A DNA stretch of 64,000 nt from Daucus carota subsp. sativus (Eukaryota; Streptophyta; Magnoliopsida; Apiales; Apiaceae). The stretch covers positions 43,177,598 through 43,241,597 of the forward strand of contig NC_030385.2 in the NCBI RefSeq assembly GCF_001625215.2, in the 5' to 3' direction. The translations under genes and the position numbers were made by a program. This document shows, in pieces, positions 51,701 through 57,463 of the stretch. Within the stretch, counting starts at the first letter, position 1. Every line of letters begins with the position of its first letter. Under the pieces are notes generated by a model, which ran no database searches, was not told where the DNA came from, and saw only the letters and a list, made by a program, of their open reading frames with translations.

Positions 51701-54700
51701 ATTGCTGAACGTGGAACTTGAACAATTAGTCCAAGTAATATAGGCTGTGAGATCTGGAAAAAAGAGAGGAAAGTAAATTACTTTATAGTGGCTGGTGGTG
51801 GGCTCCTTAGCCATATGTTCTATGTAAATAAAAAATTGTGTTGTATTTATATTTAGCCTTACATGCAATTGGTATTATTTTTTCCCCCCATTTATCCCCT
51901 TTTCTCAAGTATTTTATTCCACACATGATCAATAAGTGAACATTGTTTCCTTTTTCTTTGTGATTTTTATTGTAGCCATATAATACCAAGCAAAAGTCAA
52001 CAGTGGTTAAAACTATTTACCCTCTCTCAGGGTTATAAACCTAAAATTGGGTAATTAGTAACATCAAAATGTAGCCTATATAACATGTACTATATCTATA
52101 TCCTGACAAAGGTTCCACTTGTATGTTGATATCAGGTACAAACACGGTCCGAGTTTTCAGAAGATGAGCTGCTGTCAGTTGTTATTATGAAGGTTCGAAA
52201 AATATAGTACTTATGCTTAGAATTTAATCTCTTAATTTAGTAGTAGTGATGTGGCTAACATTAATAGAAAAGGTTACATACTAGCACTACATTTGTATAA
52301 GTTCATTTCCTATTAGCGGACACATATAGACAAATTTTTTTTGCTGTGATTGGTTAGTCATCTATTAAACAAGCTTTTATATTCTGTAAAGTTTATTTGG
52401 ACTCCACCCCTTTTGTCAGATTCAATGAAAAGATAGTTTTATAATGAAACAAAAGTTTTAGAGATGCACCTCATTTAATAAACCACCTTCTTTAGGGAAA
52501 TGCCTTCCTGTGGATTCACTGTAAAGAAGTGTATTCACCTTTACAGGTAGCTGTATAATGCTATATCTTGATTTGGTAATAAACCTTAGGGAAAGTAATA
52601 TTGTCCTTAGCCAGCCTGTTTCTTCATATGCCAAATGAGTACCTCATGTGGTACTTATTCGGGTATAAGTAGCTTCTTATGCTAATAGAAAGAGTCCCTA
52701 TGCCACCTTCATATTCATTTATTTTAGATCACATTAAATGCAAACTGTATCTCTCATGATAGTAATACTTTTGTACTTCAGAATGGTCGAAAAGTTATAT
52801 GTGGAACGCAGACTGGTGCTCTACTATTGTATTCCTGGGGTTTTTTCAAGGATTGCAGGTACCTTTTATTCTTTAGTAAAATGCTTGAAGTAGTAGAAAT
52901 CGGCAGTCCTTAATTATCGCTTTGTGGGAGAGATAACTATTGCACCCAATAATATTGACCTTTATCCCATTTTGTCAAGTATTAATATTCCTTATTTGGT
53001 GTGGGTTGTTTTGTGAAATTCAGTGACCGCTTTATTGATCTCTGTCCAAACTCTGTGGATGCGTTGTTAAAGGTATGTATCTGCTCAGTTAATGCCTAAG
53101 ACTGTTTCCACTGATTATTTTTATCAGATCTATAATTTATATTTTACTTTAGCTTGACGAAGAGAGGGTCATAACTGCCTCAGAAAATGGTGTTATCAGG
53201 TGAGTTGCCATTATTCTCAAATATGATTGGTACTCTAATTTCATTTGTGCGATAATATTATTGGTTTAACCCATTATCATACGTAGCCTTGTAGGAATAT
53301 TACCCAACAAAATAATCCAGCCAATTGCAGAACACTCGGAGTATCCTGTTGAAAGACTTGGTAAGCTTTTCTTTTCTTTTGGAGGCTACTGTGCTTCTTA
53401 GATTTGGATGTTCTTTCGATATTTTCTATGCAAAAATGTTGGAATACTAACTCATGATTTCTTGTTTTTAGCCTTTTCTCATGAAAAGAAATTTCTTGGC
53501 AGTATCTCACATGATAATATTTTGAAGGTATCTATCTTTCCGTTTCTAGATAGGAGATAGAAAATATTGAATGAAACAATGTGGAGTGTGTAATCGCCCT
53601 CAAATTTTGAAGCTTTTCTTTTTTGTAGCTATGGGATTTGGATGAGATACTACAAGGATCTAAAAGTACAGCTAAAAATTCTTCAGCTGCAGATGACAGT
53701 GACAGTGATGAGATGGATATGGATGTGGATACTCTTGCTCCAAAGCCTAGAAGAGGTATTCCTGCAGACTTATGTACCAATTTTGTAGTTTGTTGACATG
53801 CTCCTAGTGTTTAACCTTGAACATGTACTCGTTGGTGTCATGCTAAATGGTAGAACGGTGTCTGTATCTTTTATTAATTATAGATTCATGAAGTTGTTTG
53901 GATATATCTTATTCTTAAAATTTGGCATTAGTGTAACATTAGCATGATAATCTTTTGAGGGTATGCAAAGTTAGTCTCTAGCAATTATGTTCTTCAGTTG
54001 GGCATATACCTCTAATATGCTCAGGAGAAAAGATACTATTGGTTATATTGTTTTCTTAGATTACTAATTTACTAGTAAAATGACTTAGCTTTAACTCTCA
54101 ATTCGTAAATCTTTCTCTTTTATTTGTGAACTCCCAAGCGAAAGACCTGGATAGCTCGTAGGGGTGAGCAGAAAAAACCGAAACCGCAAAAAAACCCTGA
54201 AAAAACCGAAAAACCACACCGAGAAAAACCAAACCGAAAATAAAACCGAAAATAAACGAAATAAAAAAAACCGAAATTAATGGTGCGGTTTTATTTTCGG
54301 TTTTAAAACTAAAACCGCACCAAAATTAACCGAACCGAAGCTATAGGGGGTAAACCATATTGTTCACAGAAAGTTCCTAACTCATACTTAGCTTTGTTTT
54401 TATCTTTATCAACTTGCTTAGTGATCTTGTGATCAATACACATTTTCATTCCTGTCTTTTGTATTTGACTTATTATTTCTCCGTACGTTAAATCATCATA
54501 ATTTATGAATTCTGAATTTTTACTTAATTCTTCTTGTATTTTATGTGCAAATAAATTTGGAAGACCATTAACAAATTTTTCTTTATAGTATGGTTTATTA
54601 CTATCTTCTCTCATCATAACTCTGGACATAAAAACGTCTTTGTACCATTTAAAATCACTTAGTGTTGGACAGGTTAAATTACTCAGTTGATCATGTATTC

Positions 54701-56224
54701 TTTCAGTAATATTACTAGGTGTTCCAATGAAGTGTTTTATTATTGTATAAATTAGTGTATTGACTCCATCTTCTAGGTAACCAGTTGTTTCTTCAAATAT
54801 GGGTTGCCCATCATTGTCTAATTGATAAGCATTAGTAATATTAATCCTAGTTTCTTCGGTGAGATGTTTTTCCCACCAGGACCTAAGGGTTCCTGTGAAA
54901 CCATTAGTTAATATTTCAACAATATCACTTTGGTTTAAATGATTAAATTTTGTTGTATAACTACTAGCTACCATAGACATATGATTTAGTTTATTTAATA
55001 TCTCTTGTTCACTAAGACCATCTATATTCCATTCATACATTTTATTAGCTGAAACTGAAAATTGATTATCTAGATTTCTTTCTTCAAATAATAAGTCAGG
55101 AGGGGTTGGCTTGGTATACCAATCTTTTGATTTATTAAAGCTTAATTTATTAAATTGATTTTCTATTTCATGATTTGTGGAATCTTCACTATCATCAGAA
55201 CTTTCATAATACCCAAATGCTTTTATTGTTTTACTGGATTTAGGGATGTCTAGCTTTTTAAATAATTTATCTAATATTTTAATTAGTTCTTTGTCTTTAC
55301 TAGGTAAACTTAAATTGTTTCTTTTGCTAGGTAAATTTATTAAAGGTTTTTCTTCATAATCTTCTTTAATAGTTCTTATATCTAGATATTGTTTAATATT
55401 TGGCTCTTTAATCTTATCTTCAATTTTATCTAATTGTTTACCTATTGACGCTAGATATTGATTTGTGAAATTATTTTGTTCTATAACTTTCTTTTCATCA
55501 TTAATATTATCGGATATCTTGAAAGGTGATCCTTTTATCTCAATATTCATGACTGGAATTATTATTGTTTCCATTGGGGGATGACTAGATGAGACTTTTG
55601 ATTTATCTTCTTTAATCCACTGATTTTTAGTAATTACGTTACATTTACCATAATATCTTTTATACCAAGGATAAAAGGTAATATTTAATTTTTCTTTTGT
55701 TAAGAAAGATTTCCATTTATTAACTATTTTTTCTCTTTAATCATGACTATGATTTTCTCTAAATTGGTGTCTTTTTAATTTATTTTCTTTTGAATTAAAA
55801 TCTTCGTTAAATATTCCCAATTGATTTTATTTTCTTTATTAATAACACGTAGTTGGTGATTAATAGGTTCAAAATCTGTTGGTGTGGGAGATAATTGACC
55901 ATCTTCTACAGAGTGATTATAGTAGGATTTATTAGGTTGTCTTTCTTTTAGTTTTATGTTACTAATACTAATATTCGTTTTACTAAGAATATCTTCTTCA
56001 GAGTTATTATAATAGGCTTGACTAGTTTGTCCTTCATTTATAATACCCTTTAGTTTTATGTTACTAAGAAGTTCAGAATCTTTCTTAGAAGCTACTTCAG
56101 ATCTAGAACAAATTTCTTCTAATAAAAATGATTTTCTATTATGACTATCGTCAAAACTTATTCTAACTGTTCCATCTAAGTATTGTTTAATATTATCTAG
56201 ATTCATCATACTGTTCGATACTGG

Positions 56225-56267
<43 letters not shown>

Positions 56268-57463
56268 TAATAGTAATAAAACACCTCAATCATTTTTACA
56301 CTTCACATCTTATTTTATATCGAGGCTTCCTGTCCAAAGACACTCACTTATTGAGTCACTTAAATAACTAAAAGGGCACCCAAATATTTGGAGGGGCGTT
56401 TACTCAAAGATTAGGACTACTGTAGTTTGCCACAGAGCAGAAATATTTATTTTGTTAATCTGCTAATCAAATTTTATTATGAAACATATTCTATTCTTTT
56501 TATTTATGTACTTTTTGAAGACTTTTTATTTGAATTTTATGATTAGTTAATTTTGGATAATTATATTGATTTGGCATCATCTAATTTCTTGTTGAAATAT
56601 GTATGTTTAAGTTTTAATTGTGTATTAAGTTTTTTTAGATGAAAGTATGCAATGTTTCCTATATGCTCATATATGGAAACATGAGTAACCGAACATACTG
56701 TACATGTTTATGAAAAATTTATATTTTCTTAAAAAAAAATTATTATGGACAACAATAGAAAAACTGAAAAAAAACCGCAACCGGCTAATGTTTAACCGCA
56801 ACCGAAAAACCGTTTTAATTGGTGTGGTTACGGTTAATGATAATTAACCGAACCGAACCGCATTTAACAGTTTGGTTACGGTTAATGTCCGGAACCGCAC
56901 CAAACCGCACCATGCACACCCCTAATAGCTCGAACTTAGGTTCTCAATATGCAGAGTATTCAGCTTAAATTTCAAAGCTAGCAAAGGAACATAATTCAGT
57001 GCAAGTTTCAAGACATTTTACCCTCCTGTGAAATGTCTGGGATTAGAGAGGAGTGATAGTGCATGAATGTCTAGGCTCAGCTAGGTTTTTTTTTTTTTTT
57101 TTTGGTGAAGACTCAGCAAGCTCTATTAAATGAATGTAGAAACATGCCTATGGGAATCGGTGAGCTTTCATGAGATCAGAGTCTATAATTGTTATTAAGA
57201 GCAAGTGTGGTTACATTTTGTTGCATGTCACAAGTTCCATAGTGGCAGGATGAGTTCTTAGGCTTCTTTTCTGCTTTTTTGTTTGGTTGGTGTATTGTTG
57301 ATTGTCACCTTATGTCTCAGGAAACACCATAGGCATATTAGATTGCGATTGTGGTCAGTAGATAGCTTATTACATCACTTTACTAAATAACATATCTTAT
57401 GCAGGGACGAAAAGAACTGCAAATCCTGGGCAGATACAGGAGAACTTCTTTGCAGACTTGTAG
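48736..57463 (+). CDS. WDR55: WD40-repeat protein WDR55
   Basis: Nuclear WD40 protein; in Arabidopsis WDR55 interacts with DDB1 and is needed for gametophyte and embryo development, and its animal relatives act in rRNA processing. Fifteen exons, 349 aa: 48736-48830, 48954-48986, 49066-49130, 49231-49318, 49403-49475, 50345-50451, 51193-51235, 52136-52192, 52782-52858, 53024-53072, 53153-53199, 53287-53360, 53472-53527, 53629-53755, 57405-57463. Landmarks: MEIDLKKLPFDLDFHPSNQ, ASGDDDGCVKVWDTRQRSCC, SEFSEDELLSVV, GTQTGALLLYSWGFFKDC, GILPNKIIQPI, LKLWDLDEIL, then an acidic tail (DDSDSDEMDMDVD). Intron 7 starts GCAAGT, a GC-AG intron. The last intron (3649 bp) contains a hAT element with viral cargo. 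The coding sequence is intact. Confidence 0.93.
54309..56209 (-). mobile_element. Fossil: endogenous caulimovirid (pararetrovirus) capsid-region fragment
   Basis: The larger open stretch (54309-55574, minus) has the character of the capsid/gag-like region of plant endogenous pararetroviruses: GFTGTLRSWWEKHL, LSDFKWYKDVFMSRV, KEKFVNGLPNLFAHKIQEEL, LTYGEIISQIQKTGMK, ELGTFCEQYGLPP. The segment upstream on the minus strand (55775-56209) looks like the preceding part of the same polyprotein. Reverse transcriptase, RNase H and the zinc knuckle are not visible. It is partial and broken, with at least a few breaks, and has no ability to replicate. The long surviving open stretch suggests moderate age. 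The genus within Caulimoviridae cannot be fixed by eye. Confidence 0.7.
56224..56264. repeat. (TA)n microsatellite
   Basis: About twenty TA units lie at the edge of the viral fossil inside the hAT element. (TA)n tracts are frequent integration sites for endogenous caulimovirid sequences in plants, so this may mark the original junction. Confidence 0.9.

What the first reader, a model, noticed from the sequence alone, without database searches (positions are those of the whole stretch)
54159..56924. A hAT DNA transposon with a caulimovirid capsid-like fossil inside a WDR55 intron
The outer element has clean hAT ends and a perfect 8-bp target duplication, yet its body is a minus-strand pararetrovirus capsid-region fragment instead of a transposase gene. 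Either a DNA transposon picked up viral sequence and carried it to a new locus, or the virus piece landed in a MITE. If other copies with the same ends and the same cargo exist, this is transposon-mediated spread of viral sequence, which I have rarely seen described.
Basis: partly seen in the sequence, partly recalled or inferred. Interest (0 to 1): 0.75.

Follow-up and report, generated by a model that had tools for sequence, protein, structure and literature searches.

The report
Jumping gene carrying a fossil virus piece
In carrot, a small DNA transposon took a slice of an ancient plant virus's coat-protein gene into its built-in TA repeat, and the loaded transposon now sits at two unrelated places in the genome, so a cut-and-paste transposon can apparently duplicate fossil virus DNA.

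Summary
Window 54159-56924 is a non-autonomous hAT element: 12-bp end repeats TAGGGGTG(A/T)GCA and a perfect 8-bp duplication ATAGCTCG, in an intron of carrot WDR55. Inside lies a minus-strand slice of a caulimovirid movement-coat polyprotein (PF24925, PF22909).

The carrot genome settles the order of events. Of 40 scored left-arm copies (40 of 279 candidates), 36 continue into a TA-rich tract and the MITE interior without virus; 2 (L008, L013) carry other sequence there; 2, this one and one on C7, carry the same viral slice joined at the same two places. Three endogenous copies of the same virus, 96-97% identical to the slice, run on as virus through both breakpoints. The loaded pair are sisters on interior (100/99), left arm (83/82) and cargo (94/94); the flanks compared share no similarity.

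So viral DNA most likely integrated once into the MITE's own (TA)n, a known preferred target of such viruses, and the loaded MITE then moved. Caveats: only two copies; C7 duplication imperfect (5 of 8); no empty site seen.

The parts
54151..54158 (.). target site duplication ATAGCTCG, 5' copy
   Evidence: in the family, of 35 other elements with both ends (C7 copy included) 27 have 8/8 and 31 have 7/8 or better
54159..54339 (+). hAT left terminal repeat and CCGAA-rich subterminal arm (181 bp)
   Evidence: at least 40 copies in the genome at 92-100%
54340..56225 (-). caulimovirid slice: end of the movement-protein part through the coat-protein core, cut before the zinc knuckle; the right edge is ambiguous by one T
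   Evidence: breakpoints by comparison with endogenous copies on C1, C3 and C4
54309..55736 (-). 475-codon open frame, DUF7746 + Caulimovir_coat_dom; its last codons run into the hAT arm
55775..56224 (-). 149-codon frame, linker after the movement protein (NLDNIKQYLDGTVRIS); not in frame with the next one, so the gene is broken
56226..56264 (.). (TA)n of the MITE, the site into which the virus inserted
   Evidence: TA-rich tract at the same place in cargo-free copies
56265..56756 (+). MITE interior
   Evidence: with the right arm, shared with cargo-free copies at 81-94%
56757..56924 (+). hAT right subterminal arm and terminal repeat
56925..56932 (.). target site duplication ATAGCTCG, 3' copy
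53756..57404 (+). WDR55 intron that holds the element (GT...AG)

Best explanation
A non-autonomous hAT family of about 880 bp in carrot carries a variable TA-rich tract, mostly (TA)n, between its left arm and its interior. In one copy an about 1.9-kb slice of caulimovirid DNA was joined into that tract, most likely as filler DNA when a break in the (TA)n was repaired (shown: site and breakpoints, with no shared base at the left join and one ambiguous T at the right; inferred: the repair route). The loaded element kept its hAT ends and was later moved by a transposase supplied in trans, giving copies in the WDR55 intron on C5 and at a site on C7 (shown: same joins, sister relationship, no similarity between the flanks compared; inferred: the transposition itself, the transposase and the direction). 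The cargo looks like a passive passenger: its reading frame is broken in both copies and the differences between them do not favour third codon positions.
For: Perfect 8-bp duplication and hAT ends at the window copy. 36 of 40 scored left-arm copies have arm, TA-rich tract and interior without cargo. The C7 copy has the same cargo, the same left join base for base, and the right join at the same viral position into (TA)n, where the two copies differ by two T. No similarity at E<=1e-3 between 2.5 kb of window flank on each side and 1.5 and 1.2 kb of C7 flank. The loaded elements are sisters: arms plus interior 100/99 (25 rows), interior with right arm 100/99 (38 rows), left arm 83/82 (40 rows); cargo 94/94 (6 rows) with 98.46% identity against 96.2-97.3% to three endogenous viruses. 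At C1 and C3 the virus reads on into movement protein on one side and the zinc knuckle on the other; C4 has the same letters as C3 at both joins. Integration of caulimovirids into (TA)n present beforehand: PMC4241990 (section 9 read) and PMC10377300 (section 3.1 read). Differences by codon position 11/11/6.
Against: Only two loaded copies were found. The C7 duplication is ATGACCAG / ATGGCCGA, 5 of 8. MITE parts of the pair differ more than the cargo (22 of 828 against 29 of 1884; Fisher p 0.064), which gene conversion with other MITEs could explain. Left-arm and cargo trees give moderate support, and with only two rows a label falls together by chance fairly often: 15 of 500 shuffles, 4 and 32 of 500 (interior and left arm), 61 of 500. 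No transposase source and no empty site was looked at.
Confidence: 0.86

Rival explanations
1. The cargo moved between two pre-existing MITE copies by ectopic gene conversion or recombination, without transposition of the loaded element.
For: Imperfect duplication at C7; the MITE parts of the pair are somewhat more diverged than the cargo.
Against: Left arm and interior of the pair are each sisters among the copies compared, so conversion would have to reach nearly to both ends while the flanks stay unlike. The window copy has a perfect duplication.
Confidence: 0.1
2. Chance nested insertion: the virus landed in this copy alone and never moved.
For: 36 of 40 scored copies lack the cargo.
Against: The C7 copy has the same cargo with the same joins.
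Confidence: 0.01
3. Pack-TYPE capture: two neighbouring hAT ends mobilised an endogenous virus lying between them.
For: [quoted passage not shown]
Against: The MITE is complete: arm, (TA)n and interior are present and the viral slice is simply added at the (TA)n. No second pair of internal ends is seen in the window copy.
Confidence: 0.02
4. Two independent viral insertions into two MITE copies.
For: These tracts seem to be recurrent targets: the C7 copy holds a further insert and L013 an LTR-like insert there.
Against: The same left breakpoint to the base and the same right breakpoint to within a few T, and the two host MITEs are sisters.
Confidence: 0.01

Closest known systems
Endogenous florendoviruses and other caulimovirids in (TA)n repeats (PMC4241990, PMC10377300)
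   Same: Caulimovirid DNA joined into a (TA)n present beforehand, with small gains or losses of sequence.
   Different: Here the (TA)n belongs to a mobile MITE, and the viral piece is found with that MITE at a second locus.
Pack-TYPE transposons, including those of the hAT superfamily (PMC8903248)
   Same: A non-autonomous TIR element carries foreign coding sequence between its ends.
   Different: The cargo is viral and was added at the element's microsatellite, not by fusion of neighbouring elements. The whole words virus and viral do not occur in that paper's main text.
hAT-like MITEs of carrot (PMC8227079)
   Same: Same species, same superfamily; 918 of 3637 hAT-like copies were placed in introns (table passage).
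   Different: Mean length there is 454 bp. I did not match this family to any named family of that survey.
Teratorn (PMC10175614, start of abstract in search listings only)
   Same: A DNA transposon joined to other mobile or viral sequence.
   Different: Teratorn is a 180-kb composite with a piggyBac-like transposon in medaka; here a broken 1.9-kb slice is a passenger of a MITE.

Membership tests
hAT superfamily, non-autonomous | short terminal inverted repeats | tested here: met
   12 bp with one mismatch, TAGGGGTG(A/T)GCA
hAT superfamily, non-autonomous | 8-bp target site duplication | tested here: met
   window 8/8; of 35 others with both ends, 27 have 8/8 and 31 have 7/8 or better; the C7 copy has 5/8
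hAT superfamily, non-autonomous | moved by a hAT transposase that recognises these ends | not tested
   no autonomous partner was searched for
MITE | short and repeated | tested here: met
   32 of 34 cargo-free members with both ends measure 795-949 bp (others 679 and 1604), at least 40 copies of the left arm; the loaded copies, 2766 and 3323 bp, are not miniature
MITE | no coding capacity of its own | tested here: inconclusive
   window interior has no frame over 58 codons; other copies were not scanned for frames
Caulimoviridae, endogenous | coat-protein domain | tested here: met
   PF22909, 45.7 bits against a cut-off of 27
Caulimoviridae, endogenous | 30K movement protein linked to the coat protein in the source virus | tested here: met
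   C1 and C3 copies read on into sequence 52% identical to the movement-protein part of P0046, which carries PF01107
Florendovirus or any named genus | reverse transcriptase phylogeny | not tested
   the cargo has no reverse transcriptase and none was fetched; genus left open
Pack-TYPE transposon | foreign coding DNA between the ends of a non-autonomous TIR element | tested here: met
   two loci
Pack-TYPE transposon | DNA gained by mobilisation of neighbouring insertions, as proposed in PMC8903248 | tested here: not met
   cargo lies in the (TA)n of an otherwise complete MITE

The most novel reading that the evidence does not exclude
MITEs with built-in (TA)n tracts act as general docking shuttles: viral and other filler DNA integrates preferentially into the tract, and the intact hAT ends then redistribute it, so part of the repetitive endogenous caulimovirid load of plants was copied by DNA transposons and not by new integrations.
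Probability: 0.2. Interest if true: 0.7.

Novelty: new variant of a known kind. Interest (0 to 1): 0.52.

Why it matters
Endogenous caulimovirids are in principle read as one integration per copy, apart from segmental or genome duplication and hybridization, with endogenous proliferation as an alternative (PMC10377300 section 3.2, read). Here one integration seems to have become two loci through a cut-and-paste transposon, joining two known facts: these viruses prefer (TA)n, and a MITE can carry (TA)n. If general, it is a testable route by which viral fossils spread, also into gene introns, and a caution for counting and dating endogenous viruses by copy number.

Tried and rejected
Considered and dropped: (1) a movement-protein deletion in the cargo, suggested by a first alignment; P0046 showed that the NLD..QYLDGTVKI stretch normally follows the movement protein, so the slice is contiguous. 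(2) The 484 bp after the (TA)n as viral leader; it is MITE interior. (3) All near-identical virus copies being hAT-borne: of six loci with a match of 95% or more, two are in hAT ends, three (C1, C3, C4) continue as virus on both sides, and one (C9) is a fragment; no hAT arm on the same strand was found in 230-900 bp of flank at those four (plus strand only).

Led nowhere: two scans of viral contigs found no relative; the 143-residue linker found no homologue; the PDB search gave no E-value under 0.09; a paper search for the end sequence listed nothing on transposons by title.

Print check: searches. I saw titles and starts of abstracts of the papers listed, which for (20 of 67; 20 of 25; 10 of 16; 20 of 559; 15 of 51) is a part only. 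Opened: sections of PMC10377300 and PMC4241990, passages of these two and of PMC8903248, PMC13308828, PMC8227079 and PMC8449440. I saw no report of a DNA transposon that carries a caulimovirid piece to a second locus; the library holds open-licence papers only.

Limits: one search scored 40 of 279 candidates, so MITE counts are lower bounds and a loaded copy with a decayed left arm could be missed there; one search scored 40 of 41 cargo candidates, which covers that gap better. Rows left out of trees: copies without a long enough match (25 rows used; 38 and 40); the C9 fragment, the second C1 piece and the first C4 piece, and all but one of the about 74% copies.
Full report
What is there. The element spans 54159-56924 with terminal repeats TAGGGGTGAGCA and TAGGGGTGTGCA and the duplication ATAGCTCG on both sides. 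The arms hold repeated CCGAA-type motifs. Between them lies a minus-strand coding region: a 475-codon frame with DUF7746 and the caulimovirid coat-protein domain, preceded by a 149-codon frame that is not in frame with it. Of 201 homologues the best 120 were listed, mostly unnamed or hypothetical proteins of plants and metagenome contigs; the best is 68% identical, and P0038 of Daucus carota is 75% identical over 45% of the query.

Host. Contig lengths and the neighbouring gene identify carrot: C5 has 47,556,597 bases and C7 41,844,801, the contig lengths given for the Daucus carota WDR55 protein (98% over 90% of the query) and for P0038. The element lies antisense in the WDR55 intron 53756-57404, the last intron of the frame read.

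The empty element. A genome search with the left arm scored 40 of 279 candidates, all 92% or more identical. Besides the window copy (L001) and the C7 copy (L002), 36 of the remaining 38 continue from the end of the arm (mostly CCGAACCGAA) into a TA-rich tract, usually (TA)n, and then the interior that the window has at 56265-56924. Two of these 36 have no right end in the match, and one (L004) has two interiors. Of 35 elements with both ends, C7 copy included, 27 have perfect 8-bp duplications and 31 have 7/8 or better; 32 of the 34 cargo-free ones measure 795-949 bp, the others 679 and 1604. The remaining two, L008 and L013, carry different sequence at the tract. For L013 the right arm and the matching duplication GCTCTTAA lie beyond a long insert that looks like an LTR retrotransposon (label recalled from its TGGTATCAGAGCC motif). 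For L008 no right arm was found in the stretch fetched.

The second loaded copy. The C7 element (L031:1518-4840) has the same ends, the same left join base for base, and virus joined to (TA)n at the right, where the copies differ by two T; it also has about 490 bp more inserted in the tract. The flanks compared (2.5 kb on each side of the window element against 1.5 and 1.2 kb at C7) share no similarity at E<=1e-3. Its duplication reads ATGACCAG / ATGGCCGA, 5 of 8, or one substitution and one insertion if a gap is allowed.

The source virus. A search with the cargo gave 61 matches, with 40 of 41 candidates scored. Six loci have a match of 95% or more. Two are the hAT-borne ones. At C1, C3 and C4 the sequence goes on past both breakpoints. 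At C1 and C3 it reads as the zinc-knuckle region of the coat protein on one side and as movement protein on the other; C4 has the same letters as C3 at both joins. C9 is a fragment. A second family of endogenous copies is only about 74% identical. The cargo is therefore an internal slice of a carrot caulimovirid, cut at both ends, with no shared base at the left join and one ambiguous T at the right.

Order and age. On MITE sequence alone the two loaded elements are sisters inside the cargo-free copies (100/99, 25 rows; interior with right arm 100/99, 38 rows; left arm 83/82, 40 rows). On the cargo they are sisters with 94/94 (6 rows), and the branch that they share is short (0.0029), as expected if the slice entered the MITE near the time when the virus was endogenised (inference). 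Because the group has only two rows, shuffled labels fall together in 15 of 500, 4 and 32 of 500 and 61 of 500 trials. Cargo divergence is 29 of 1883 sites, K2P 0.0156, about 0.6 to 1.9 million years at assumed rates of 1.3e-8 to 4e-9 (rates recalled, not from a call). Differences fall 11/11/6 on codon positions 1/2/3, with one outside the frames, and no frame is whole in either copy, so nothing suggests selection on the cargo as a protein since the copies parted.

Mechanism. Florendovirus DNA is often flanked by (TA)n, shown to be present beforehand at several Oryza loci, with short stretches gained or lost, and is thought to be filler in break repair (PMC4241990, section 9 and passages; PMC10377300, section 3.1). 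A MITE that carries such a tract offers that target inside a mobile unit. Loading is shown by the empty and the loaded forms; the move is inferred from two loci with shared joins, sister MITEs and unlike flanks. The repair route, the transposase and the direction are inferred too.

Against this reading: two copies only, an imperfect duplication at C7, a slight excess of divergence in the MITE parts (22 of 828 against 29 of 1884, p 0.064), moderate support in two of the trees, and no accession with an empty site. Gene conversion between MITEs is the main rival.

Verdict. An unusual and well-resolved case made of known parts: hAT MITE, (TA)n integration of caulimovirids, transposon-borne cargo. 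I rate it a new variant of a known kind, interest 0.52.

Noticed in passing
L031:3652-4144 (C7 copy): About 490 bp more inserted in the same (TA)n, with inverted-looking ends (GTTACAAACTTACAAACTT ... AAGTTTGTAAGTTTGTAAC), perhaps a second MITE: the tract seems to have taken two inserts in this copy.
   Followed up: partly
L044 and L048 (C5:19521943-19534851): Another MITE copy (L013) holds an LTR-retrotransposon-like insert at the same tract, with the MITE's right arm and matching duplication GCTCTTAA about 12.9 kb away.
   Followed up: partly
L042 (C5:14026284 onward): MITE left arm (L008) followed by a TA-rich tract and unrelated sequence that ends in another (TA)n; no right arm found in the stretch fetched.
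   Followed up: partly
L004/L047 (C1:24743622 onward): A 1604-bp member with one left arm, two copies of the interior and a perfect outer duplication CGAGATCC.
   Followed up: no
C4, C5, C9 and others (table): A second endogenous caulimovirid family, about 74% identical to the cargo, with over a dozen copies, several close together (C5:3928960, 3936694, 3941747).
   Followed up: partly
window 55901-55965 and 55991-56067: Imperfect internal duplication (73%) in the coat-protein linker; the C7 copy has 15 more bases near here.
   Followed up: no
P0001: A relative whose start resembles the movement-protein start seen at C1 but runs straight into coat protein, as if the movement protein were spliced out or deleted.
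   Followed up: no
MITE trees: The hAT MITE copies split into two well-separated subfamilies (100/100); both loaded copies lie in the same one, the smaller in these samples.
   Followed up: partly
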